Positions 75 to 13,869 of a stretch of 36,236 nt of DNA are shown here, in pieces; positions within the stretch are counted from its first letter, which is position 1, and every line of letters begins with the position of its first letter. Under the pieces are notes generated by a model. That model was not told the origin of the DNA. It worked only from the letters and a program-made list of their open reading frames with translations, and did not search any database. The translations under genes and the position numbers were made by a program. Location: positions 1-36,236 of the forward strand of contig NZ_JMME01000019.1 of assembly GCF_000686945.1 (NCBI RefSeq), read 5' to 3'. This DNA comes from Selenomonas sp. AE3005 (GTDB lineage: Bacteria > Bacillota > Negativicutes > Selenomonadales > Selenomonadaceae).

Positions 75-1313
75 ATGAGCAGAAAAACACGCAGTCCAGA
101 AGAACAAGCTCGCAGAGCAAAGATTCGGGAGTTGTTGCAGGCAAGCAACATTGGCAGTATGGAGGACATCCAGAACTTGTTCAGGGAAACCATTGCCGAA
201 TTTATGGAAAACGGCCTTGAAACCGAGATGGATGAATCTCTGGGCTATGGTAAGTACGACTATAAGAACAAAGATACCGACAATAGCCGCAATGGGCATA
301 GCAAAAAGAACCTTCGCACCAGCTTTGGTGAAGTTGAAGTCTCTGTCCCTAGAGACCGCAAGGGAGAGTTCGACCCGCAACTCATCAAAAAGAACCAGAC
401 CAGCATAAGTCAGGATATTGAGGAGAAGATCTTCTCCATGTATGCCAAAGGCATGACTACCAGTGATATTGAATCCCACGTTCGAGACATATATGGTATC
501 GAGGTGTCAGACACCACCATTAGCCGCATCACAGACAAAATACTGCCGATTGCCAGAGAGTGGCAGCAACGTCCACTGGAAAGCCTTTATGCCGTAGTGT
601 TTATGGATGCCATTCATTACCATGTTCGCAGTGAGGGGCAAATTGTCAAGAAAGCCGTATATATCGCCATTGGCATTGACATGGACGGACACAAAGATGT
701 ACTGGGGATGTGGGTAGGCGAGAACGAAAGTGCCAAATTCTGGGCCAACATCCTGAACAGTCTCAGGAACCGTGGTGTAGAAGACATCCTCATTGCCTGC
801 ACGGACAACCTGACGGGCTTCTCAGCAGCCATAGAGGCGGTTTTCCCACAGACAGATATACAAAACTGCATTATCCACCAATTGCGAAATTCCAGCAAAT
901 ATGTCAGCTACAAAGACCTCAAGGCACTTATGGCTGATTTGAAAGAGGTTTACGCAGCGGTAGATGAGCCATCTGCCCTGGCTGCATTGGAGCGATTTTC
1001 GGAGCGTTGGGATAAGAAATATCCCAAGATTTCCCAATCCTGGCAGGATAACTGGGCTAATTTGAGCACCTACTTTAAATTTCCCAAAGAGCTAAGAAAG
1101 TTGATTTACACCACTAATACTATTGAAGGCTTTAACCGCCAACTACGGAAAGTGACAAAAGCCAAATCTGTATTCCCGACAGATGACAGCTTGCTGAAGA
1201 TGCTTTATCTGGCCATGATGGATATTACAAGGAAATGGACAGGACGCCGCCAAGACTGGAGCCTTATCCATGCCCAGCTTGCCATTTATTTCGACGGGAG
1301 AATTCCGGAATAA
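75..1313 (+). CDS. IS256-family transposase
   Basis: This 412-residue DDE transposase has the length and layout of the IS256/MULE family. It catalyses cut-and-paste or copy-out movement of the surrounding element. The catalytic triad is visible as D178 in FMDAIHYHVR, D244 in ACTDNLTGF and E351 in TNTIEGFNRQLRK. The N-terminal third holds the helical DNA-binding part, including the typical NSRNGHSKK stretch. The ATG is preceded by GGAGG at a normal distance. The frame is uninterrupted and the inverted repeats lie just outside it, so the gene appears functional. Other frames inside it are shadows. Confidence 0.97.
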   Translation: MSRKTRSPEEQARRAKIRELLQASNIGSMEDIQNLFRETIAEFMENGLETEMDESLGYGKYDYKNKDTDNSRNGHSKKNLRTSFGEVEVSVPRDRKGEFDPQLIKKNQTSISQDIEEKIFSMYAKGMTTSDIESHVRDIYGIEVSDTTISRITDKILPIAREWQQRPLESLYAVVFMDAIHYHVRSEGQIVKKAVYIAIGIDMDGHKDVLGMWVGENESAKFWANILNSLRNRGVEDILIACTDNLTGFSAAIEAVFPQTDIQNCIIHQLRNSSKYVSYKDLKALMADLKEVYAAVDEPSALAALERFSERWDKKYPKISQSWQDNWANLSTYFKFPKELRKLIYTTNTIEGFNRQLRKVTKAKSVFPTDDSLLKMLYLAMMDITRKWTGRRQDWSLIHAQLAIYFDGRIPE

Positions 1314-1486: not shown

Positions 1487-1527
1487 CGGGCGCTGTGGAT
1501 GCAGAACATGATTCTTTACTTTTTAAC

Positions 1528-1566
1528 CAAAACACAAGAGCGGCTGACATTTGATATGTCAGCCGC
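1528..1566 (-). terminator. Terminator of the minus-strand peptide operon
   Basis: The stem GCGGCTGACA/TGTCAGCCGC has a 7-base loop. On the minus strand it is followed by a T-rich run. It begins 14 bases after the stop of the last minus-strand peptide gene, so it most likely ends that operon. Confidence 0.7.
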
Positions 1567-1579
1567 CTTATTGTTTTAA

Positions 1580-1741
1580 TTAGAGAGAATTAAACAGGTC
1601 AGCCCAGGATTGTGCCGCATCTTCAACCTCATTGACAATTACATCTCCCGCATCTTCAAAAAAGTCGCCAATTTCACTAAGCCAATTACCGCCAGCCACC
1701 GTGTCCAATTGCATTACGTTAAGTTCTTTCTTGTCCATCAT
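1580..1741 (-). CDS. Double-glycine leader peptide 1 (acidic core)
   Basis: This 53-residue gene is too short for routine ORF calling. Its leader reads MMDKKELNVMQLDTVAGG. The double-glycine leader type is normally cleaved after GG by the peptidase domain of an ABC exporter (PCAT). The predicted 35-residue core has no basic residue and about nine acidic ones, with W at the start and again near the end. It could form an amphipathic helix. A purine-rich GGGG site precedes the first ATG. It is the last gene of a three-gene minus-strand operon. The leader and upstream bases closely match peptide 3, which indicates duplication. The leader call is direct from sequence; the exported-peptide role is inferred from the leader family. 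The target is unknown. Confidence 0.8.
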   Translation of the reverse strand: MMDKKELNVMQLDTVAGGNWLSEIGDFFEDAGDVIVNEVEDAAQSWADLFNSL

Positions 1742-1780
1742 TTTTGACATCCCCTTTCTTTTCTGCTTAGTTGACTTTAA

Positions 1781-1936
1781 CTATTTTGGACTTATTCTAT
1801 GATCCACAGGGTCATTCCACGGGCATAAATGAGGATCATCTACAGGGTCAAAAGAGGGATCACCAAGAGGAGGAGTCTCGATTCCGCCGGCAATCATTTC
1901 CATTTCCATAATCTCTAGTTCCTTCTTGTCCATCAT
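1781..1936 (-). CDS. Double-glycine leader peptide 2 (Pro/Asp-rich core)
   Basis: The peptide has 51 residues. The leader MMDKKELEIMEMEMIAGG is followed by a 33-residue core rich in proline and aspartate (GDPSFDPVDDPHLCPWNDP), with one cysteine and net negative charge. The start is fixed by AGGAGG upstream of an ATG-ATG pair; a longer open frame reaching upstream lacks such a site and is not used. It lies between peptides 3 and 1 in a minus-strand operon, with gaps of 25 and 39 bases. The core resembles neither neighbour, although the leaders are near-identical. The repeated DP units and the single Cys are unusual for a pore-forming bacteriocin. Function unknown. Confidence 0.8.
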   Translation of the reverse strand: MMDKKELEIMEMEMIAGGIETPPLGDPSFDPVDDPHLCPWNDPVDHRISPK

Positions 1937-1961
1937 TTTGAAAACCTCCTTTCCATTGATA

Positions 1962-2162
1962 TTACTCTTGGATAGGATATATCGCATCATAAACCATCTC
2001 CATGCCCTTCCAGGTCACTTCCACTACTTCGTTTGTAACATCTTCAACGCCGTTCCAGACATCCTTGGCGGTATCTTCAACAAAATCCACAACATCACCA
2101 ATCCAACTACCACCAGCCACCATGTCCATCTCCATCATGTTAAGTTCTTTCTTGTCCATCAT
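1962..2162 (-). CDS. Double-glycine leader peptide 3 (acidic, Trp/Val-rich core)
   Basis: The peptide has 66 residues. The leader is MMDKKELNMMEMDMVAGG and the core has 48 residues, three Trp, many Val and about twelve acidic against two basic residues. The start SWIGDVVDFVED parallels NWLSEIGDFFED in peptide 1, so these two cores are related, unlike most in the array. It is the first gene of the minus-strand operon and starts from a GGGG-containing site. Its upstream region is divergent from peptide 4 and contains the tract GCCTATACATACGCTTGA, which is also found upstream of the cyclase at 6436-7098. Export by a peptidase-ABC transporter is inferred; none is encoded in the window. Confidence 0.8.
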   Translation of the reverse strand: MMDKKELNMMEMDMVAGGSWIGDVVDFVEDTAKDVWNGVEDVTNEVVEVTWKGMEMVYDAIYPIQE

Positions 2163-2206
2163 TTTTGACAGCCCCTTTCTTTTGTGTTTAGTTGACTTTG
2201 ATTACC

Positions 2207-2339
2207 TTTGCCTATACATACGCTTGATAAAGTCAAGTATTACATTTTTTTTCTCCAGCACTACACACTTTTTGCTTTCGGGGATATAAAGAACAGAAAG
2301 TAAGATAACAACATGCTAAGATGTGAGGAGGAAAACAAA
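2207..2339 (+). repeat. Upstream cassette module, copy A (divergent control region)
   Basis: This is one of five copies of a module that precedes peptide cassettes. It contains an imperfect palindrome CTTGATAAAGTCAAG, a T-rich tract with two ACATTTTTT/ACACTTTTT-like 9-mers, the promoter core at 2262-2290, and a GAGGAGG ribosome site. The other copies lie at 3207-3314, 3870-3977, 4571-4651 (shortened) and 7141-7235. Confidence 0.8.
2262..2290 (+). promoter_or_regulatory. Cassette promoter, copy A
   Basis: TACACA, a 17-base spacer and TATAAA resemble a sigma-70 promoter with a weak -35. The spacer carries the conserved block CTTTCGGGGA. A weak -35 with conserved upstream direct repeats suggests an activator-dependent promoter (inference). 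Confidence 0.55.
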
Positions 2340-2528
2340 ATGGACAAGAAATTCATGAATAAGATGGACGGTATGGAAATGGACAAGGTATCTGGAGGAC
2401 GATGCAATCCCGGTGGGAGCAAGAAACGTCCCCGTCCTAGCTTCCATGACAGTAATGCAAATTCTATGGCAGCTAATATAATGGGGGCCACCGAGAACGC
2501 AAATTCTATGGCAGCAAAAGGTAAATAA
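2340..2528 (+). CDS. Double-glycine leader peptide 4 (cationic, repeated NANSMAA core)
   Basis: The peptide has 62 residues. The leader MDKKFMNKMDGMEMDKVSGG is followed by a 42-residue core that starts with a basic Pro/Gly-rich part (RCNPGGSKKRPRP). It ends in two copies of NANSMAA separated by a short linker. The ATG is preceded by GAGGAGG; an open frame beginning 27 bases upstream is ignored because of that site. The NANSMAA segment and its DNA, plus the bases after the stop (AATAGCGACACAGG), recur in peptide 7, which is evidence of exchange between genes. It is transcribed from cassette promoter A and ended by the terminator at 2554-2584. Function unknown; an exported antimicrobial or signalling peptide is possible. 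Confidence 0.82.
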   Translation: MDKKFMNKMDGMEMDKVSGGRCNPGGSKKRPRPSFHDSNANSMAANIMGATENANSMAAKGK

Positions 2529-2553
2529 TAGCGACACAGGAGAAGACATAGAC

Positions 2554-2584
2554 AGAGGGCATATCATCAGATGTGCGCTCTTTT
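2554..2584 (+). terminator. Cassette terminator, copy 1
   Basis: The hairpin AGAGGGC(A) / TGCGCTCT is followed by TTTTATTGTG. It belongs to the 3' repeat found after nearly every plus-strand peptide gene. This copy continues as a long repeat to about 2656 that matches 4884-4984. Confidence 0.65.
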
Positions 2585-2658
2585 ATTGTGTCTGCGGAAA
2601 GCGTAGTTCATAATTAAATATAAATCATGGACTGACATGGCGTTAACATAAAAAGAGA

Positions 2659-2680
2659 GGGAGGCATTGCCTCCCTTTTG
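2659..2680 (-). terminator. Terminator between convergent genes
   Basis: The perfect stem GGGAGGC/GCCTCCC has the loop ATT. T runs lie on both sides, so it can act in both directions. It mainly serves the minus-strand gene ending at 2684. Confidence 0.7.
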
Positions 2681-2683
2681 TCA

Positions 2684-3139
2684 TTATTGATTAGCCAAAT
2701 GAAACCTTATTCTAGAGATAATAAGCTCTATCATCTCTTCGGAAAATTCAGCCTGATAATAATTGTAATTTACCCTAGTAACCGCAGATAACCCCGTAAC
2801 CATAGGTGAATAAAAAGAGTCCTTTTGCAGGAACATCTCGATGGTTTTCTTATTTGCTGATGCCCATCCCAATTCAACATGTACTCCGCCTGAAATAGTG
2901 GAACCTGGAATACAACATACTAGGTCGCATTTTTTTATAGTATCGTAATCAATTCTTGTACTTTCGATATCAGAAGTATATTCTTTTCCAAAATTCTCAC
3001 GTTCAACGGCCAAGAAATAATCAACGCCCTCGTTCTTAATTTTACGAGTTAATAAAGAAAAAAACTTTCGATATTTTTCTTTAACCATGTAATTTTCATC
3101 ACATAACTGGGTATATGGTGTAGCTAAGAAAACAAACAT
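2684..3139 (-). CDS. Nucleoside 2-deoxyribosyltransferase-like protein
   Basis: The protein has 151 residues. The N-terminus MFVFLATPYTQ and the later block CDLVCCIPGSTISGGVHVELGWASA fit the nucleoside 2-deoxyribosyltransferase / nucleotide N-hydrolase fold. In that fold a Glu of the G-x-x-x-E-x-G-x-A motif attacks the glycosidic bond. That Glu is present (GVHVELGWA). No signal peptide or membrane segment is seen. AAGGAGGC precedes the ATG at a normal distance. The gene sits between peptide cassettes 4 and 5 on the opposite strand with its own terminator. The fold also occurs in NAD-cleaving and defence proteins, so a nucleotide-salvage role is not certain. An immunity role for the peptides is possible but unsupported. 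Confidence 0.7.
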   Translation of the reverse strand: MFVFLATPYTQLCDENYMVKEKYRKFFSLLTRKIKNEGVDYFLAVERENFGKEYTSDIESTRIDYDTIKKCDLVCCIPGSTISGGVHVELGWASANKKTIEMFLQKDSFYSPMVTGLSAVTRVNYNYYQAEFSEEMIELIISRIRFHLANQ

Positions 3140-3238
3140 TGAACGATGCCTCCTTAATAAATATATAATTTAATAATTCTATATAAATTAACTAAATCCT
3201 CTTAATAAAGTCAAGTATTACATTTTTTTCTCCCGTAC

Positions 3239-3267
3239 TACACATTTTTTGCTTTCGGGGATATAAA
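3239..3267 (+). promoter_or_regulatory. Cassette promoter, copy B
   Basis: TACACA, 17 bases and TATAAA lie within the same conserved block as copy A. The upstream module begins near 3207 with AAAGTCAAGTATTACA and drives peptide 5. Confidence 0.55.
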
Positions 3268-3314
3268 GAACAGAAAGCAAAAACAACACTCAAGATTGTG
3301 AGGAGGAAAATAAA

Positions 3315-3551
3315 ATGGATAAGCTGATGATGAACAAACTGGACGATATGGAACTGGACATGGTAGCTGGTGGATACGTTAAGAACGGAGGTCCAGATGA
3401 TAATAATTCTCCAGCTCATCGATTGGGTCGTAAAATGAACAATGCAATAGTAAATGGCGGTAAAGCAGTAGTAAATGGAGTTAAAGCAGTTGGCAGCGCG
3501 TTTGGAAGATTTTTCCGCTTGGCTCGTGAGTGTAGAGACAGGGCTCTGTAA
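3315..3551 (+). CDS. Double-glycine leader peptide 5 (cationic amphipathic core)
   Basis: The peptide has 78 residues. The leader MDKLMMNKLDDMELDMVAGG is followed by a 58-residue core with about +7 net charge. The middle (NGGKAVVNGVKAVGSAFGR) has the small-residue and hydrophobic spacing typical of membrane-active class II bacteriocins. The end is rich in Arg with one Cys. AGGAGG lies upstream. Its first 59 coding bases match those of peptide 6 exactly, after which the two genes are unrelated. It has its own promoter (copy B) and terminator (3562-3592). Bacteriocin-like function is inferred from charge and pattern; export would need a peptidase-ABC transporter encoded elsewhere. Confidence 0.82.
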   Translation: MDKLMMNKLDDMELDMVAGGYVKNGGPDDNNSPAHRLGRKMNNAIVNGGKAVVNGVKAVGSAFGRFFRLARECRDRAL

Positions 3552-3561
3552 ATTCATAGTC

Positions 3562-3592
3562 AGAGGGCATATCATCAGATGTGCTCTCTTTT
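3562..3592 (+). terminator. Cassette terminator, copy 2
   Basis: AGAGGGCA and TGCTCTCT pair across CATCAGA and are followed by TTTATTG. This is the same 3' repeat as at 2554, and homology stops abruptly at about 3610. Confidence 0.65.
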
Positions 3593-3610
3593 ATTGTGTC
3601 TGCAGAAAGC

Positions 3611-3682
3611 AAGGCCGCCAACCTCAAAGAAGAGGCCAGGACAATTATCAGGAACAGCGAGATAGGAGGACACAAGGCATGA
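3611..3682 (+). pseudogene. C-terminal remnant of the gene upstream of YolD (UmuC/DinB-type?)
   Basis: Directly after the cassette repeat, a frame reads KAANLKEEARTIIRNSEIGG and ends in a TGA that overlaps the ATG of the YolD-like gene (ATGA). The composition looks coding, and the translational coupling fits the usual UmuC/DinB-YolD gene order. Only about 23 codons remain. The UmuC assignment is inferred from gene order, not from a diagnostic motif. Confidence 0.4.
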
Positions 3683-3870
3683 TAACACGCAGAGATATTA
3701 AGGACTACCAGCACATAATCAACCTGCCACGCCCCGAACCACAGAGGCACATACGTATGGCCATGTACAAACGTGCCGCCCAATTCGCCCCCTTTGCCGC
3801 CTTGACCGGCTATGAAGAAATAGTGCAGGCAACAGCCAAGGCCCACGAAAAAGTAGTGGCGGGCGGTTGA
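3679..3870 (+). pseudogene. YolD-like protein, 3' end truncated by cassette module
   Basis: The frame encodes 63 residues starting at an ATG behind AGGAGGA. The segment YKRAAQFAPFAALTGYEEIV is the hallmark of the YolD-like family, which is usually encoded beside Y-family DNA polymerases. Family members are usually about 90-120 residues. Here the protein stops at VVAGG, with its TGA exactly where the upstream module of cassette C begins (TTGAAAGTCAAG). The 3' end was therefore probably lost when the cassette arrived or recombined. It has no link in function to the peptides and marks a former SOS-type polymerase operon. Confidence 0.65.
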
Positions 3871-3901
3871 AAGTCAAGTATTACATTTTTTTCTCCCGCA
3901 C

Positions 3902-3930
3902 TACACACTTTTTGCTTTCGGGGATATAAA
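3902..3930 (+). promoter_or_regulatory. Cassette promoter, copy C
   Basis: TACACA, 17 bases and TATAAA, nearly identical to copies A and B. The two upstream 9-mers ACATTTTTT and ACACTTTTT start 22 bases apart. It drives peptide 6 and, through a fused junction, peptide 7. Confidence 0.55.
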
Positions 3931-3977
3931 GAACAGAAAGCAAAAACAATACTCAAAGATGTGAGGAGGTACATAAA

Positions 3978-4133
3978 ATGGATAAGCTGATGATGAACAA
4001 ACTGGACGATATGGAACTGGACATGGTAGCTGGTGGGAAAGTGGAATTCCCTAAATTCCTTAGATTTCTTAAAAAGGATAAGCCACCTAAAAAGCCCACG
4101 GTTAGCCCAAACAGACTTATCAGAATACCGTGA
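3978..4133 (+). CDS. Double-glycine leader peptide 6 (short, strongly cationic core)
   Basis: The peptide has 51 residues and is too short for routine calling. The leader MDKLMMNKLDDMELDMVAGG is identical to that of peptide 5. The 31-residue core (start KVEFPKFLRFLKKDKPPKKP) has seven Lys and three Arg against one Asp and one Glu, plus several Pro. This is the profile of a cationic antimicrobial peptide. GAGGAGG lies ahead of the ATG. No full terminator follows: the partial 3' repeat at 4171 runs straight into the ribosome site of peptide 7, so the two are probably co-transcribed. The antimicrobial role is inferred from composition only. Confidence 0.82.
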   Translation: MDKLMMNKLDDMELDMVAGGKVEFPKFLRFLKKDKPPKKPTVSPNRLIRIP

Positions 4134-4170
4134 AAAGGCCTCTTGATTATACAACAACATAAGTCGTGGC

Positions 4171-4207
4171 AGAGGGCATATCATCAGATTGTAAGGAGGA
4201 AAATAAA
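4171..4207 (+). repeat. Recombined junction: half terminator fused to ribosome site
   Basis: AGAGGGCATATCATCAGAT is the left half of the cassette 3' repeat. It continues directly as TGTAAGGAGGAAAATAAAATG, the right end of the 5' module. The terminator right arm and a whole promoter are missing. The short identity at AGAT/TGT is a likely recombination point. Confidence 0.75.
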
Positions 4208-4402
4208 ATGGAAAAGAAGTTCATGAATAAGCTGGACAATATGGAAATGGATATGGTAGCTGGGGCTAGGGGATATGTGCCAATGCCGCCTTGGACGCGT
4301 CATTCCGGTTGCCATGACAGTAATGCAAATTCTATGGCAGCAAATGTAGACGAAACACAAAATGCACGTTGGAGAGAAATTGCAAAGATAAAACCAGACT
4401 AA
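4208..4402 (+). CDS. Double-glycine-type peptide 7 with GA in place of GG
   Basis: The peptide has 64 residues. The leader MEKKFMNKLDNMEMDMVAGA ends in GA rather than GG; GA is tolerated by some leader peptidases but may change cleavage here. The core has a Pro/Trp-rich start (RGYVPMPPWTRHSGC) with one Cys, then DSNANSMAAN, which is shared with peptide 4, then a mixed-charge tail. Net charge is near +1, unlike the other plus-strand cores. AGGAGG precedes the ATG. The gene has no promoter of its own because of the fused junction upstream, and it ends at a full cassette terminator (4428-4458). It may be a recombinant in the course of diversification. Confidence 0.78.
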   Translation: MEKKFMNKLDNMEMDMVAGARGYVPMPPWTRHSGCHDSNANSMAANVDETQNARWREIAKIKPD

Positions 4403-4427
4403 TAGCGACACAGGTATAGACACAGCC

Positions 4428-4458
4428 AAAGGGCATATCATCAGATGTGCTCTCTTTT
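4428..4458 (+). terminator. Cassette terminator, copy 4
   Basis: AAGGGCATATCATCAGATG-type hairpin with TGCTCTC on the right and TTTT after it. The left arm is one pair weaker than in other copies. The 3' repeat continues to about 4503 (ATAATTAAATATAAATC). Confidence 0.6.
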
Positions 4459-4572
4459 ATTGTGTCTGCAGAAAGCGTGGTTTATAATTAAATATAAATC
4501 ATGAGCGCTTGCAGTATGCAGGTGGTATGGTTACCTTTCGCCACACATTCAGTGTGAAAAAATCAATCTAAC

Positions 4573-4602
4573 TACACACTTTCCCTACTTCGGGGATATA
4601 AA
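4573..4602 (+). promoter_or_regulatory. Cassette promoter, copy D (shortened module)
   Basis: TACACA, 18 bases and TATAAA with CTTCGGGGA kept. The upstream AAAGTCAAG palindrome and the first 9-mer are missing and replaced by unrelated sequence. If those sites bind a regulator, peptide 8 would be controlled differently. Confidence 0.5.
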
Positions 4603-4651
4603 GAACAGAAAGCAAAATAACAACATACAAAAGTGTGAGGAGGAATATAAA

Positions 4652-4870
4652 ATGACTAAGAAGTTCATGAACAAGATGGACAATATGGCACTGGACAAGG
4701 TATCTGGTGGAAGAATAATCTTGACGCCAAAATTAGATAATTCAGGTAAAATCGGAAATGCTATAGAAAATAAGATCAAAAAAGGAGTTAAGGAAATTAA
4801 GGAGTTCTTCGATTTCTTAAAACCAAAGTGGACACAGCCAGGTAAGCTCAAAAACAACATTATCGCTTGA
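4652..4870 (+). CDS. Double-glycine leader peptide 8 (Lys-rich core)
   Basis: The peptide has 72 residues. The leader MTKKFMNKMDNMALDKVSGG is followed by a 52-residue core with eleven Lys and one Arg against about five acidic residues. The helical-looking middle is NKIKKGVKEIKEFFDFLKP. GAGGAGG precedes the ATG. It is the last plus-strand cassette, with promoter D and terminator at 4884-4914. The regular spacing of Ile/Val/Phe among Lys suggests a cationic amphipathic helix. A bacteriocin-like role is plausible but unproven. No partner immunity gene is recognisable downstream, where the next gene is a convergent esterase. Confidence 0.82.
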   Translation: MTKKFMNKMDNMALDKVSGGRIILTPKLDNSGKIGNAIENKIKKGVKEIKEFFDFLKPKWTQPGKLKNNIIA

Positions 4871-4883
4871 TTACAGAATAGCC

Positions 4884-4984
4884 AGAGAGCATATCATCAG
4901 ATGTGCTCTCTTTTATTGTGTCTGCAGAAAGCGTGGTTCATAATTAAATATAAATCGCGGACTGACATGGCGTGAACATAAAAA
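4884..4984 (+). repeat. Long 3' cassette repeat, second full copy
   Basis: The first 31 bases form the terminator AGAGAGCA/TGCTCTCT with TTTT after it. The remainder (TGTCTGCAGAAAGCG, ATAATTAAATATAAATC, GGACTGACATGGCGT) matches 2554-2656 nearly base for base. This shows that entire cassettes with flanks were duplicated. Confidence 0.8.
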
Positions 4985-5007
4985 GGGAAGCTGTCTCACA
5001 GCCTCCC
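4980..5007 (-). terminator. Terminator of the esterase gene
   Basis: On the minus strand GGGAGGCTGT pairs with ACAGCTTCCC and is followed by TTTT. It begins 13 bases after the esterase stop. Confidence 0.65.
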
Positions 5008-6435: not shown

Positions 6436-7098
6436 TTATGCTATTGGCTTTACTATAACACAGTTGTCAGGATTTGACAATCCGTCCCGTTCATAGCAAA
6501 CAAGACCATCCACAGATATACGACTTAAGTGTTCTTTATTCTTTGAATTCAATTTATTATATACTCTGTCTGATATAATTAAGTTTACATACCCATTTCT
6601 TCCAGCAGCGTTACAAAAATGGCACGCATGATTTACGACATCACCAATCCATAATATGTCATTTATTCCGGATCCTTTCAATCCAGCCTTAATCATAAGT
6701 GCTCTGCCATAAGCCATTCCAATTCCCGCGCCAAAGTTTATACTTTGTTTTCTATATTTGTCTGCTAATTCTCTTTGCATAGAATCTATCGATAAAGCTA
6801 TGTTAAACAAAAAGTTCATATCCTTTTCTTGTGTCACGTTAAAAACTGCGCCAACGCAATCTCCTTGAATAGTTATGTATTGACTGTTTCCATATGATTT
6901 TTCTATAGCTTTTGAGATAAACTCCCTATATAGTCTAGCCAACGTTGGTCTTTTATGGCCATCAAGCAACTTGGATGAACCAACAATATCTGTATATATT
7001 GCAACTACATTTACATAAAAGCCATTGTCATATGTCAGACTAGATTCTTTGGGTATAGTGTCTCTCTCAGGATAAGTTAAGTTTTCATTTATAAACAT
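6436..7098 (-). CDS. Class III nucleotide cyclase domain protein
   Basis: The protein has 220 residues, almost entirely one cyclase catalytic domain. Metal-binding positions are visible: Asp in VAIYTDIVGSSKL and Asp in IQGDCVGAVF. WIGDVVNHACHFCNAAGR matches the conserved GxxVNxAxR-like element. No receptor, membrane or regulatory domain is attached. GGAGGGG directly precedes ATG 7098; the open frame continuing upstream only reads antisense through a cassette module and is rejected. Stand-alone cyclases of this size include cCMP/cUMP synthases of the Pycsar phage-defence type, but no cyclic-nucleotide effector gene is adjacent here. Product and role are therefore open. Its upstream region is shared with cassette module E. 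Confidence 0.75.
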   Translation of the reverse strand: MFINENLTYPERDTIPKESSLTYDNGFYVNVVAIYTDIVGSSKLLDGHKRPTLARLYREFISKAIEKSYGNSQYITIQGDCVGAVFNVTQEKDMNFLFNIALSIDSMQRELADKYRKQSINFGAGIGMAYGRALMIKAGLKGSGINDILWIGDVVNHACHFCNAAGRNGYVNLIISDRVYNKLNSKNKEHLSRISVDGLVCYERDGLSNPDNCVIVKPIA

Positions 7099-7140
7099 TA
7101 TTTCCCCTCCAAACCTATGATAAGAAAATACTAACATTTG

Positions 7141-7235
7141 CCTATACATACGCTTGACAAAGTCAAGCATTACATTTTTTTCTACAGCACTACACACTTT
7201 TCCTTCTTTGGGGATATAAAGAACAGAATGCATTA
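7141..7235 (+). repeat. Upstream cassette module, copy E
   Basis: The module has a perfect palindrome CTTGAC-AAA-GTCAAG, then TTACATTTTTTTCTACAGC and the promoter core at 7191-7220. It is shared between the divergent cyclase (minus) and the secreted protein gene (plus), as copy A is shared between peptides 3 and 4. Confidence 0.75.
7191..7220 (+). promoter_or_regulatory. Cassette promoter, copy E
   Basis: TACACA, 18 bases and TATAAA, then AGAACAGAA as in the peptide cassettes. It lies 71 bases before the start of the secreted protein at 7291, which places that gene in the same regulon (inference). Confidence 0.55.
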
Positions 7236-7290
7236 CGGCAAAGATAAGCCGGGTGGTATAAGGATGAATCATTGATAAGGAGTGAGGAAC

Positions 7291-7638
7291 ATGTCGTTGA
7301 AGAAAGTATTCCCTTTGTTGTTTTTGCTGACGTTGATGCTATCGAGCAGTGCCTTTGCGGAAAAAGCGACGGTGGTTTATTACAATGCTGTGAATAAAAG
7401 CGTGGTTGTATCCAGTTTTCATGGCTACAGTTGTGGCTGGGTACGGAAATATTACGCCAAACCGCACCGGCTGCACCCTGGTGATGTCCTGGAAGGAAGT
7501 TTTGTGCTGGGTTCCCATAGATGTTCCGATGAGAGCAACGAAAGAGACGTCGAAATTTATTTTGATGAATGGTGGGTGAAAAAAGACGTAGCTCACAAAT
7601 GGGTCGAGACACAGGAAGATAAAGATTGTTTCTGGTGA
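7291..7638 (+). CDS. Small secreted Cys-containing protein under cassette promoter
   Basis: The protein has 115 residues. The Sec signal peptide MSLKKVFPLLFLLTLMLSSS ends at AFA-E, leaving a mature part of about 90 residues. Three cysteines are visible (YSCGW, HRCSD, KDCFW), as is a Trp-rich end. The ATG at 7291 follows AAGGAG at eight bases; a GTG nine bases earlier lies too close to that site. I do not recognise the family. It carries the same promoter module as the double-glycine peptides but a Sec leader, so it would leave the cell by another route at the same time. A terminator follows at 7682. Confidence 0.75.
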   Translation: MSLKKVFPLLFLLTLMLSSSAFAEKATVVYYNAVNKSVVVSSFHGYSCGWVRKYYAKPHRLHPGDVLEGSFVLGSHRCSDESNERDVEIYFDEWWVKKDVAHKWVETQEDKDCFW

Positions 7639-10114: not shown

Positions 10115-10155
10115 CGCCCCGACATACATTAACGAGTATATCGGGGCGCTTTCTT
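10115..10155 (-). terminator. Terminator between convergent genes
   Basis: CGCCCCGA pairs with TCGGGGCG within a 12-base arm with one mismatch. A T-rich run follows on both strands. It ends the minus-strand ATPase and may also serve the symporter. Nothing else is seen in 9953-10114. Confidence 0.75.
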
Positions 10156-11461
10156 AGCTTAACAAGAAATCCAACAAATTTATAATTCTTATACCATCCT
10201 CTGTCAGTTTGATATTACTATCTAAGGTTAATACAATCTTAGGAAAGTTATCTTTTATCTCTTTTAAAGGAGCTAATTCCCGTGTAATTGTTTCTTCAGA
10301 GCGCATTTCTTGTGTAACTTGATAATATATCTTTTCTTCACCTTTTATGGCAATAAAGTCTACTTCTTTATTGCCAATTTTGCCAACGGCTACATCATAT
10401 CCTCGGCGAAGTAATTCAAAATAGACGATGTTTTCAATCTGGTGCCCGGTATCTATTCCTCGGTAACCTAGCAGATAATTTCTAAGCCCTGTATCTACCA
10501 TGTAATATTTACCAAGAGTTTGTAAATACTCCTTACCTTTTATATCAAATCTCTTTATGGGATAAAAAAGATAAGCTTCTGTCATATCATCTACATAATT
10601 GGAAATGGTTCTGACAGCTGGTTTTCCATGTCTTTTCCTTTCCTGCAACATTTTATTAGATACCAATGTATTGCTAATATTGTTGAAGGAAATACTGCTG
10701 CCGATATTATCAGCAAGGAATTGACATACCTTTTCGAGCAAGACAGAATCTATGGTGTGGGAGTTAGGTTTTAAATTAGCACGGTCAATGATATCTCTTT
10801 TTACAACTGTGTTATATATGCCATCTAATATAGCTAAAACTTTATCCTGTTCAAGTCCTATATCACTTAAAACCGGGAAGCCACCATAACGAACATATGC
10901 CTCGAATAAATCTGCAATTTCTGTCATTTCTCCCATGGAGTCATAGGCGCGTTTTCTCTGTTCGCCAATTGGTGAAACATAATCTTTTAATGTATATCCT
11001 TGAAAGGTTATGAACTCATTAAAAGATAAAGGCAGCATCTTTATTTCAACATATCTACCAGACAAATAAGTAGCATATTCAGACGATAATAAGTAAGCAT
11101 TTGAACCTGTTATATATATATCGCAATTAAAATCAACCTGAAATGAATTTACAGTCTTATTCCAGTTTTCTATAGTCTGTGGTTCATCAAGAAAGATATA
11201 CATTTTCTTTCCTGTAATGATTCTTTCTTGAACATACTGATAGACTTGCTTACGGTCAAAATCATCAAACTGATTAGATTCAAAATTCATGTAGATTATT
11301 TGCTCAGATTGAGTATCATGCTCAATTAGATATTGCATCATTAACTTCATAACTGTTGATTTTCCGCAACGTCTGATACCAGTAATGATTTTGACTGGCT
11401 CCTGGTCCTTAAAAGACAGTAGTTGCCTAAGATATATGTTGCGTTGCTTAATTTCTTCCAT
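10154..11461 (-). CDS. P-loop ATPase with DUF4143 C-terminus
   Basis: The protein has 435 residues. The Walker A motif is ITGIRRCGKST (about residues 26-36), Walker B is MYIFLDEPQ (about residue 95), and the sensor stretch ITGSNAYLLSSE follows. The C-terminal half is of the DUF4143 type and has VDFIAIKGEEKIYYQVTQE, a D-x-x-A-x-K-like nuclease fold signature. Such ATPases are abundant, scattered and often horizontally acquired, with roles that are not established. The gene stands alone; the start codon lies directly before the upstream AT-rich region. It is not related closely to the second ATPase at 12460, which is of the DUF234 type. Confidence 0.82.
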   Translation of the reverse strand: MEEIKQRNIYLRQLLSFKDQEPVKIITGIRRCGKSTVMKLMMQYLIEHDTQSEQIIYMNFESNQFDDFDRKQVYQYVQERIITGKKMYIFLDEPQTIENWNKTVNSFQVDFNCDIYITGSNAYLLSSEYATYLSGRYVEIKMLPLSFNEFITFQGYTLKDYVSPIGEQRKRAYDSMGEMTEIADLFEAYVRYGGFPVLSDIGLEQDKVLAILDGIYNTVVKRDIIDRANLKPNSHTIDSVLLEKVCQFLADNIGSSISFNNISNTLVSNKMLQERKRHGKPAVRTISNYVDDMTEAYLFYPIKRFDIKGKEYLQTLGKYYMVDTGLRNYLLGYRGIDTGHQIENIVYFELLRRGYDVAVGKIGNKEVDFIAIKGEEKIYYQVTQEMRSEETITRELAPLKEIKDNFPKIVLTLDSNIKLTEDGIRIINLLDFLLS

Positions 11462-11789
11462 AATGCACCTCCGTTATAATAACAATACCATAAACTATAA
11501 GTTATATCAAGTTTATTATTCATAATGCAACAAAATCTATAAATTGGCGACTTTATTCCAACATGAACAATTAGGTCATGCAGGTATACCGGAACGCTTA
11601 CAACAGTACAGACAAGGATGATCACGAGGCCACTTGCTCAAGGCCATAGGCTACTGCTTGGACAGAGGAGCCACCAAAAGTGAACTCCATGGTTGAAACA
11701 AGATTTATCGTGAGAAGTCAGCCGAGGTCATAGTACTAAGCGGGGTATAGACCGTTTTGGAAGGACTGAACTTTAGGAGATGTCAGTAA
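11462..11789 (+). other. Gap without a supported gene
   Basis: The first 60 bases are AT-rich and would hold the promoter of the minus-strand ATPase. The remainder shows short open stretches broken by several stops in all frames. It is probably decayed sequence upstream of the frameshifted gene at 11790. No repeat or hairpin stands out. Confidence 0.5.
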
Positions 11790-12399: not shown

Positions 12400-12459
12400 T
12401 GTTATATAATATAGTCAATAGAAACTTAGTAAATAGCTATTGAGTAAAAGGTGATGGAG

Positions 12460-13869
12460 ATGCAGGAGCATAATTTTATCGGTCGGGAACGAGAATTAAA
12501 GAGATTGAATAAAATGCATAGCAGCCAGGGGCAGGAAGTTGCTTTGATTTATGGTAGGCGCCGAGTAGGTAAAAGTGAATTGATAAAGTATTTTATTCAG
12601 CAACATGATGAAGATGCTATTTATTATGAGTGTAAGCAGACTACTGAACCGAACAATGTAGATTCGCTGGCTGAAATTGTTTCGGAAAAGATGAATTTAC
12701 CACCTCTGGGATTTACCAATGTGGAACAGGTACTGGATTTCCTGTTCAAGCAAGCTTGTACGAGAAAGACTATATTGGTGTTGGATGAGTATCCGTATCT
12801 GCAAAAGATAGTTGCAGGGTTAGATAGTATATTGCAGGCACTGGTTGATAAATATAAGAATCAATCGCAAATGAAGCTGATATTATGCGGCTCCTTTGTG
12901 GATACGATGAAAAAACTTCTCTTACGGCACAATCCTTTATATGGGAGAATTTCTGTCGTACTTAATCTAAAGCCCATGAACTATTTGGAGTCAGCACGGT
13001 TTTATCCATCTTTTTCCCATGATGACAAGGTAAGAATTTACAGTGTATATGGCGGAATCCCATACTACAATAGCCTTATTGATGAGAGCTTGTCAGTAAA
13101 GGAAAACATCATGGATTTGATTGCGCTGCCTGGTGCCCGTCTGGAAGATGAAGTTTCTTTGTATCTAAATACGGAGCTTTCCAAGATAAACAGTGCAAAT
13201 GAAGTGTTTGAAGCATTAACCAGAGGGTTTTCAAGATTCAGTGATGTTCTATCGCAATCGCATTTGTCCAGCAGCTCTTTATTGGCCGATGTGTTGAAAA
13301 AGCTGATGCTGATGGATATGGTAGAGAAGGAAGCGCCTATCAATGATGCCAACAATAAGCGGAAAACCGGTTATTATATCAGCGATAATATGTCTATGTT
13401 TTATTATCGGTATGTTTTCCGTTACGCATCCCAAAGGCGCATTATGAATCCGGAAGTATTCTATCAGCGTTACATTGAGAATGATTTTGAACAATTTTAT
13501 GTACCAAAGAGGTTTGAGGATATTTGCAAACAATTCCTTATTATGAAGAATAAGCAGGGGGAAATGGAGGAACCTTTCGAGGCCATAGGTAAATACTACT
13601 ATGATTTGCCCAAGGAACATAAAAATTGTGAATTCGATGTTGTGACGAAGGATGACCGTGGGTATGTCTTCTATGAAGCGAAGTTTCGTGAAGCGCCTGT
13701 TTCCAATGCCATGGTGGAAACAGAAATCCAGCAGGTAAATATGACTGGTTTGTACTGCTATCGGTATGGGTTCTTTTCTAAATCAGGCTATGATGAAGAT
13801 ATTTCCCGTTCTGATGTGGTCAAATATACATTGGATGACCTGTATAATGGAAAAAATAGTTCATATTGA
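12460..13869 (+). CDS. P-loop ATPase with DUF234/PD-(D/E)XK-like C-terminus
   Basis: The protein has about 470 residues. The N-terminal NFIGRERELKRL is followed by Walker A (IYGRRRVGKSE) and Walker B (ILVLDEYPYL), the layout of the archaeal-type ATPase family. The C-terminal 120 residues carry CEFDVVTKDDRGYVFYEAKF, a D-x(n)-E-x-K pattern like PD-(D/E)XK nucleases of the DUF234 group. AAAAGG fits ATG 12460 best at eight bases; GTG 12451 and ATG 12454 are in-frame alternatives. A -10-like TATAAT lies at 12405. It sits between two blocks of decayed plasmid genes, as if inserted. The role of the family is unknown. Confidence 0.8.
   Translation: MQEHNFIGRERELKRLNKMHSSQGQEVALIYGRRRVGKSELIKYFIQQHDEDAIYYECKQTTEPNNVDSLAEIVSEKMNLPPLGFTNVEQVLDFLFKQACTRKTILVLDEYPYLQKIVAGLDSILQALVDKYKNQSQMKLILCGSFVDTMKKLLLRHNPLYGRISVVLNLKPMNYLESARFYPSFSHDDKVRIYSVYGGIPYYNSLIDESLSVKENIMDLIALPGARLEDEVSLYLNTELSKINSANEVFEALTRGFSRFSDVLSQSHLSSSSLLADVLKKLMLMDMVEKEAPINDANNKRKTGYYISDNMSMFYYRYVFRYASQRRIMNPEVFYQRYIENDFEQFYVPKRFEDICKQFLIMKNKQGEMEEPFEAIGKYYYDLPKEHKNCEFDVVTKDDRGYVFYEAKFREAPVSNAMVETEIQQVNMTGLYCYRYGFFSKSGYDEDISRSDVVKYTLDDLYNGKNSSY

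What the first reader, a model, noticed from the sequence alone, without database searches (positions are those of the whole stretch)
1580..4870. Array of eight double-glycine leader peptides with unrelated cores
Eight small genes (51-78 residues) share one leader (MDKK-x-MNK-x-D-x-ME-x-D-x-V-x-GG or close variants), but their cores are Pro/Asp-rich, Lys-rich, Arg-rich or repeat-bearing. No peptidase-ABC exporter, modification enzyme or immunity protein is seen in the window. The leader type is established for bacteriocins and signalling peptides; a diversified set of this size with repeated regulatory flanks is unusual and may be an undescribed exported-peptide system.
Basis: partly seen in the sequence, partly recalled or inferred. 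Interest (0 to 1): 0.85.

Follow-up and report, generated by a model that had tools for sequence, protein, structure and literature searches.

The report
Shared-promoter family of exported rumen peptides
A gut (probably rumen) Selenomonas bacterium carries a scattered set of small peptides built for export that share one export tag and a common switch sequence, mostly positively charged ones often placed back to back with negatively charged ones, and their likely export machine sits elsewhere in the genome next to a likely control gene.

Summary
Observation confirmed. The eight small genes are double-glycine (GG) precursors in two divergent groups: five on + (type A), three on - (type B). The exporter lies elsewhere: the 2.82-Mb genome has two C39-peptidase NHLM export operons and more precursors with this leader at other loci.

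Type A genes mostly sit 61-67 nt behind the start of a 25-nt element, type B behind a different one. Of 62 distinct A-element sites read, 50 precede a GG precursor and 4 a Sec-signal protein. Among 100 genomes the element occurs in 15; 14 of those carry an ECF sigma factor that closes one NHLM operon, against 4 of 85 without the element. In four relatives the element lies about 90-190 nt behind that sigma gene. Type A cores are mostly cationic (50 of 57), type B cores anionic (18 of 18).

Best reading: a sigma-factor-coupled, genome-dispersed regulon of exported peptides, perhaps for competition between bacteria. Export is well supported by inference, sigma control is inferred, antibacterial function is a guess. 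New variant of a known kind: no family model matched over its cut-off, and my searches listed no paper on it.

The parts
1580..1750 (-). Type B GG precursor; core of 35 aa, net charge -9, amphipathic
1781..1936 (-). Type B GG precursor; Pro/Asp-rich core of 33 aa, net charge -5
1962..2162 (-). Type B GG precursor; core of 48 aa, net charge -10, amphipathic
2205..2237 (-). B element (33 nt), start of the first type B gene 42 nt behind it
2276..2300 (+). A element, exact copy
2340..2528 (+). Type A GG precursor; core of 42 aa, net charge +5, PRP and SMAAN motifs
2554..2581 (+). Terminator-like hairpin (folding z -4.1)
3253..3277 (+). A element, exact copy
3315..3551 (+). Type A GG precursor; core of 58 aa, net charge +7
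3562..3589 (+). Terminator-like hairpin (folding z -4.9)
3916..3940 (+). A element, exact copy
3978..4133 (+). Type A GG precursor; core of 31 aa, net charge +8
4208..4402 (+). Type A precursor with a GA site; core of 44 aa, net charge +1; no element of its own, probably read with 3978
4430..4453 (+). Terminator-like hairpin (folding z -2.8)
4588..4612 (+). A element, one mismatch
4652..4870 (+). Type A GG precursor; core of 52 aa, net charge +7
4884..4911 (+). Terminator-like hairpin (folding z -5.1)
7206..7230 (+). A element, three mismatches
7282..7638 (+). Small protein with a signal-peptide-like start (by pattern) behind an A element; co-regulated candidate, role unknown
7135..7167 (-). 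B element, two mismatches, ahead of the PycC-like gene 6436-7098

Best explanation
The array is one node of a genome-dispersed regulon of GG-leader peptides in Selenomonas and relatives. A typical type A gene is a small cassette: A element, RBS, leader plus core, terminator-like hairpin. Several type A cassettes stand back to back with type B genes that have an element of their own. The leaders present the same C39 recognition residues, so one exporter can take very different cores. The likely exporter is the NHLM-type operon on contig C2 (RND-type adaptor, HlyD, C39-peptidase ABC, second ABC, TolC-like protein), whose last gene encodes an ECF sigma factor. That sigma factor most likely drives the A element, so exporter and unlinked type A precursors are switched together; type B genes use another promoter. 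Peptides are cut after GG, GA or GS and released: mostly cationic A peptides and anionic, mostly amphipathic B peptides. They most likely act on neighbouring bacteria as a diversified bacteriocin-like repertoire. Shown: sequences, elements, co-occurrence, synteny, charge split. Inferred: export, cleavage, sigma control. Guessed: antibacterial action and what the charge pairing does.
For: Leader residues at -1/-2, -4, -7, -12 fit C39 recognition. Two complete NHLM operons in the genome. Of 62 distinct A-element sites 50 precede GG precursors, 49 of them at 61-67 nt; of 17 B-element sites 15 precede type B precursors. Leader and NHLM ABC1 co-occur: 18 of 20 leader genomes against 13 of 80 others; element and ECF at 60% identity or more: 14 of 15 against 4 of 85; leader and ECF within the genus: 11 of 11 against 1 of 11 (sets). 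Element close behind the ECF gene in four relatives and 0.9 kb behind in a fifth. G011 has one ABC1 over the cut-off, of this type, and 13 leader hits. A sigma-70 consensus scan lists no site at the A or B elements of the array. Leaders under purifying selection. Charge split.
Against: No expression, cleavage, binding or activity data. G052 has two element sites but no close ECF; G001, G002, G023 and G038 have the ECF without an element within 3 mismatches. G006 and G046 have leaders but no ABC1 over the cut-off (both incomplete: 68% and 82%), and G046 no such ECF. The conserved block of the element is longer than two promoter boxes need be. No shared element is visible ahead of eight exporter operons. 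In this genome no element or precursor lies beside the C2 operon in the stretch fetched. Behind the element next to the ECF, L125 has a non-GG ORF and in L126 the GG gene lies further on. No immunity gene identified. Relatives are not independent.
Confidence: 0.55

Rival explanations
1. The peptides are exported as described, but the A element is read by the housekeeping sigma factor or by another regulator; the ECF link only reflects that both travel with the exporter.
For: The element holds a TATAAA like a sigma-70 -10 box, and the conserved block is about 27 nt long, more like an operator or conserved 5' leader. Four genomes have the ECF without the element and one the element without a close ECF.
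Against: Element and ECF agree better (14 of 15 against 4 of 85) than element and ABC1 (14 of 15 against 17 of 85). The element lies beside the ECF gene in five relatives. The sigma-70 scan lists nothing at the elements.
Confidence: 0.25
2. The peptides are signals (pheromones) or surface and biofilm factors rather than antibacterial agents; the short anionic B peptides would be the signal or a surfactant.
For: GG leaders also serve signalling peptides (PMC6363468 abstract). Of 15 scorable B cores 12 are more amphipathic than their shuffles. Some cores are strongly conserved across genomes (FDYGYG dN/dS 0.09).
Against: Many different cores in one genome (19 leader hits) suit a repertoire better than one signal. 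No receptor or two-component gene was looked for. Type A cores are mostly cationic.
Confidence: 0.2
3. Selfish or decaying gene copies: duplicated cassettes without present function.
For: Some copies have cores of only 6-9 residues (L110 13065, L135, L146 3651, L172). An IS256 transposase lies beside the array and a foreign gene remnant inside it.
Against: Leaders are under purifying selection in most core families; element spacing and hairpins are kept across genomes; the eight window genes are intact.
Confidence: 0.07

Closest known systems
NHLP and Nif11-related (N11P) precursors with the NHLM export cassette (Haft 2010, PMC2887384; abstract and passages seen)
   Same: Same exporter families (TIGR03794, TIGR03796, TIGR03797 over their cut-offs), GG leaders, many precursors per genome, leader kept while cores vary.
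   Different: The leaders here are about 18-29 residues and match neither precursor model at E 1 for the eight window genes; no modification enzyme beside the array; shared promoter element, ECF gene and charge-opposed divergent pairs are not in the passages I saw (the words 'sigma factor' and 'dispersed' do not occur in that text).
Cyanobacterial double-glycine bacteriocin clusters (Wang 2011, PMC3140520; passages seen) and the CTB family model NF038167
   Same: Conserved GG leader, very diverse cores, C39 exporters, several precursors per cluster.
   Different: There precursors were sought near the export clusters; here most lie unlinked to it. One window precursor scores 16.7 bits against NF038167, cut-off 32. 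The word 'promoter' does not occur in that text.
Class II two-peptide bacteriocins (recalled; model TIGR03949 as the nearest scanned)
   Same: GG leaders, small cores, some amphipathic, genes in neighbouring pairs.
   Different: No model over cut-off (TIGR03949 E 0.11-0.62); partners are divergently transcribed, oppositely charged and from different promoters; no immunity gene identified.
Prochlorosin-like repertoires: many precursors, one enzyme (recalled, not tested)
   Same: Many precursors with one leader and variable cores served by shared machinery.
   Different: No lanthionine-type enzyme was searched for; cores are poor in Ser, Thr and Cys (mean 10% in A, 8% in B).

Membership tests
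Double-glycine (C39/PCAT-exported) precursor peptides | N-terminal leader ending in GG, GA or GS with hydrophobic -4, -7 and -12 | tested here: met
   Met by all eight window leaders on direct reading; 75 of 75 pattern-found leaders have hydrophobic -7 and -12 and 74 of 75 V or I at -4, but the patterns partly demand this. Rule from PMC6363468 passages.
Double-glycine (C39/PCAT-exported) precursor peptides | C39-peptidase ABC exporter in the same genome | tested here: met
   Two matches over cut-off; the C2 and C6 operons.
Double-glycine (C39/PCAT-exported) precursor peptides | Cleavage after the GG site and release of the core | not testable with these tools
   Needs peptidomics or an enzyme assay.
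NHLP / N11P precursor families (TIGR03793, TIGR03798) | Match to the precursor model | tested here: not met
   No match up to E 1 for the eight window precursors.
NHLM export system | ABC1, ABC2 and HlyD over curated cut-offs | tested here: met
   L013 and L014 proteins. The TolC-like protein of L014 is below its model cut-off (164 against 225 bits).
CTB family bacteriocin (NF038167) | Score over the curated cut-off | tested here: not met
   16.7 bits against 32 for 1580-1750.
ECF sigma factor regulon | ECF gene linked to the system and a shared promoter element on its targets | tested here: met
   ECF in both NHLM operons; element statistics.
ECF sigma factor regulon | The sigma factor recognises the element | not testable with these tools
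   Only co-occurrence and adjacency are available; exceptions G052, G001, G002, G023, G038.
Class II two-peptide bacteriocin | Match to a known class II model | tested here: not met
   Best TIGR03949 E 0.11, 12.3 bits against 21.5.
Class II two-peptide bacteriocin | Killing that needs both peptides, and self-immunity | not testable with these tools
   No assay; the Sec-signal protein 7282-7638 is only a co-regulated candidate.

The most novel reading that the evidence does not exclude
A dedicated ECF sigma factor, carried as the last gene of a peptide exporter operon, commands an unlinked arsenal of exchangeable leader-core cassettes built of charge-opposed divergent pairs: a sigma-driven cationic peptide, often with a Pro-Arg-Pro motif like that of animal proline-rich antimicrobials (likeness recalled, not tested), and a separately driven anionic, mostly helical partner that guards, delivers or triggers it. 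That would be a two-promoter, two-charge peptide weapon of a kind I found no paper on.
Probability: 0.3. Interest if true: 0.8.

Novelty: new variant of a known kind. Interest (0 to 1): 0.62.

Why it matters
Mining that starts at the exporter would miss these unlinked precursors. The A element, the B element and the leader model give three independent handles to find whole repertoires in Selenomonas, Anaerovibrio and relatives. If the sigma link holds, it explains how one exporter serves many remote precursors and gives one gene whose deletion switches a whole peptide set off. The charge-opposed divergent pairing is a concrete, testable puzzle, and such peptides could shape competition in the rumen.

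Tried and rejected
Tried without yield. AlphaFold of the FDYGYG core family: mean pLDDT 36, not used. Model of the Sec-signal protein 7282-7638: best model pLDDT 73, the other four about 40; no PDB match below E 0.26. Pfam and NCBIfam: nothing over cut-off for the eight precursors or the longer GG-leader proteins scanned. Phages: no match; plasmids: one record, S. ruminantium pSRC1, matching window about 3610-3815, which is a gene remnant inside the array (annotated there as the end of a 'DNA methylase' gene and a hypothetical protein), not a peptide gene. Upstream regions of eight exporter operons: no common element seen. My first terminator pattern was faulty and found nothing; a corrected one found 18 places, two of them of another sequence type.

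Considered and rejected. NHLP or Nif11 membership for the array: no model match. Products of a radical SAM enzyme: three SPASM matches exist in the genome, on C5 and C7, none in the window; remote modification is not excluded, and lanthionine or other enzymes were not searched for. Leader inside stable intracellular proteins: in the hits read, the leader lies at the N-terminus of a small ORF.

Limits. Types A and B were separated by leader patterns written after seeing the sequences, not by charge. The relatives are not independent and several are incomplete. The genome sets for the Fisher tests were copied by hand. In the merged charge test cores under 15 residues and repeated or similar cores were dropped (57 to 51 to 26 A; 18 to 17 to 13 B). 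Hydrophobic moments used distinct cores of 18-60 residues; 12 A and 2 B cores without a Pro-free 18-mer were not scored. In the dN/dS script the SMAAN family was skipped and pairs within a family are not independent. The A-site reading covers the sequence held at that point, from the 15 element genomes and some named records.
Full report
WHAT IS THERE. The window is one whole contig (C16, 36,236 bases) of a 2.82-Mb genome. A 22-base string of the A element, scanned against named genomes, gave 19 stretches, all from records labelled Selenomonas ruminantium, Anaerovibrio or uncultured Veillonellaceae. Ten of the 15 genomes with the element belong to the window's own genus. So the window is most likely from a Selenomonas, a rumen genus (habitat recalled). 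Eight GG precursors lie at 1580-4870. Five on the plus strand (type A) have leaders like MDKKFMNKMDNMELDKVSGG; three on the minus strand (type B) have leaders like MSKMMDKKELNxMEMDMVAGG. The leader patterns hit 8 times in the window and 0 times in 200 Markov resamples.

CASSETTES. Genes 2340, 3315, 3978 and 4652 each have an A element (2276, 3253, 3916, 4588) whose first base lies 62-64 nt ahead of the start codon. A hairpin followed by T lies behind 2340, 3315, 4208 and 4652 (folding z -2.8 to -5.1). Gene 4208 has no element of its own: a copy of the left part of the hairpin at 4170-4189 runs straight into its RBS region, so it is probably read together with 3978. The three type B genes stand behind a B element at 2205-2237 in the same intergenic region. 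That divergent region is strongly conserved in eight places in three genomes. Of 13 type B clusters in the set, eight are divergent from an A element with about 104-118 nt between B start and element. Four carry the B element without an A element nearby, and one is unclear. A sigma-70 consensus scan of 1500-5000 found no more promoter-like sites than shuffles (10 against 10.2) and none at the A or B elements.

GENOME-WIDE. A model of the eight precursors finds 22 places in the genome up to E 10, 18 of them at E 0.001 or better; the leader model finds 19 at E 0.001. They lie on C16, C8, C1 and C10, with weaker ones on C11. The A element (up to 3 mismatches) occurs 10 times in the genome, its reversed control 0 times; eight of these precede GG precursors and two precede small Sec-signal proteins. 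Over all sequence held, 62 distinct A sites were read: 50 precede a GG precursor (49 at 61-67 nt; one at 144 nt, the upstream one of two tandem elements), 4 precede Sec-signal proteins, 1 is cut by a contig end and 7 precede other ORFs or none. One of the 7 is a GG precursor with a shortened leader, and two precede ORFs that begin MAIEN. The B element has 17 sites in 6 of 100 genomes: 15 precede type B precursors, one of them truncated; one precedes a Pycsar-cyclase-like gene at window 6436-7098; one has no type B gene.

EXPORTER. Two C39 ABC proteins are in the genome. Both belong to NHLM operons whose ABC1, ABC2 and HlyD proteins pass the curated cut-offs. The C2 operon (L014) reads RND-type adaptor, HlyD, ABC1, ABC2, a TolC-like protein (below its model cut-off) and an ECF sigma factor. 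The C6 operon (L013) has a different ECF gene (41-43% identical) and GG precursors of its own, some rich in Asn and Gln, with no A element in the stretch fetched. Over the 100 genomes, 31 have ABC1 over cut-off, 20 the leader, 15 the element and 18 the C2-type ECF at 60% identity or more. Leader and ABC1: 18 of 20 against 13 of 80. Element and ECF: 14 of 15 against 4 of 85. Element and ABC1: 14 of 15 against 17 of 85. Leader and ECF: 16 of 20 against 2 of 80; within the genus (22 genomes) 11 of 11 against 1 of 11. G011 has one ABC1 over cut-off, with this ECF behind it, and 13 leader hits; G013 has two ABC1 over cut-off but neither this ECF at 60% nor any leader. Against: G006 and G046 have leaders without ABC1 over cut-off; their assemblies are 68% and 82% complete, and G006 has the ECF.

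SIGMA LINK. In L123, L124, L125 and L126 an A element lies about 114, 118, 87 and 191 nt behind the matched end of the ECF gene; in L119 it lies 917 nt behind with one opposite-strand ORF between. In L119, L123 and L124 it directly precedes a GG gene; in L125 it precedes a small non-GG ORF; in L126 the GG gene follows some 290 nt on. In G000 and G010 the corresponding operon has no element in the stretch fetched. Against the link: G052 has two sites without a close ECF; G001, G002, G023 and G038 have the ECF without an element within 3 mismatches; the conserved block is longer than two promoter boxes; no common element precedes the exporter operons. I give sigma control about 0.55.

LEADERS AND CORES. 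The eight window leaders have hydrophobic residues at -4, -7 and -12; of the 75 found by pattern, all have them at -7 and -12 and 74 have V or I at -4, though the patterns partly demand this. These are the positions that matter in the LahT structure and mutants (PMC6363468 passages). Leader dN/dS is 0.09-0.51 in 10 of 12 core families, 0 in one and 3.65 in one with almost no changes. Cores range from strongly conserved (FDYGYG, 0.09) to 2.5 (GLFD). Synonymous divergence differs between leader and core of the same family in both directions (KRYVYP 0.36 against 0.12; SWLDD 0.42 against 0.04; SWWDD 0.01 against 0.46), which suggests leader-core exchange; I did not test this formally. One core (FDYGYG) occurs with clearly different leaders.

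CHARGE SPLIT. Type A cores: mean +3.9; 50 of 57 positive, 3 negative, 4 neutral. Type B: mean -6.7; 18 of 18 negative. After merging similar cores: 26 A groups (23 positive, 1 negative) and 13 B groups (all negative), Mann-Whitney p 5e-7. Of 15 scorable B cores 12 are more amphipathic than shuffles (z over 1.65); of 28 scorable A cores 6 are. Twelve of 57 A cores carry PRP, and all twelve also carry SMAAN.

LITERATURE. Searches on Selenomonas or Negativicutes GG peptides, NHLM/NHLP with ECF factors, ECF genomic contexts, scattered precursors under sigma factors and charged peptide pairs listed no paper that I recognised as describing this system. I judged by listings and abstract openings (the list was capped at 20 of 78) and saw passages of three papers. 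The library lacks most subscription journals.

VERDICT. A real, conserved, exporter-linked peptide family, new in its leader, promoter elements, dispersion and charge pairing as far as my searches reach, but built from known parts. Function is unproven.

Noticed in passing
window 6436-7098 (-), element 7135-7167 (-): A Pycsar-cyclase-like gene (PADLOC PycC, E 3.4e-68) stands behind a B element, divergent from the Sec-signal protein 7282-7638 behind an A element. A defence-type gene seems placed under the peptide promoter pair.
   Followed up: partly
window 7282-7638; L162 5248-5604; L134 1032-1388; L017 19090-19446: Small proteins with signal-peptide-like starts behind A elements; three are 90-93% alike, the fourth only 24% identical. 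Possible immunity or co-secreted factors; role unknown.
   Followed up: partly
window about 3610-3870: A gene remnant inside the array matches S. ruminantium plasmid pSRC1 (70% identity over 206 bases; hypothetical protein SELR_RS16725 and the end of a 'DNA methylase' gene).
   Followed up: partly
window 75-1313 and 11696-11766: IS256-family transposase at the left edge of the contig and a group II intron D1-D4 match.
   Followed up: no
window 10154-11461 and 12451-13869: Two ATPase-like proteins match candidate defence models PDC-S01 (E 9e-150) and PDC-S27 (E 2e-45).
   Followed up: no
L013 10870-12141: The second NHLM operon has GG precursors of its own, several with Asn/Gln-rich repeats, and another ECF gene: a parallel system.
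   Followed up: no
L065, L119, L125, L127 (GG genes beside exporters): GG-leader proteins with cores of about 90 residues that resemble each other and may be small folded proteins, unlike the short peptides of the window.
   Followed up: partly
L123 13355-15526: Beside one exporter, a precursor whose leader looks Nif11-like and a 514-aa protein that looks like a peptide-modifying enzyme (impression from sequence only).
   Followed up: no
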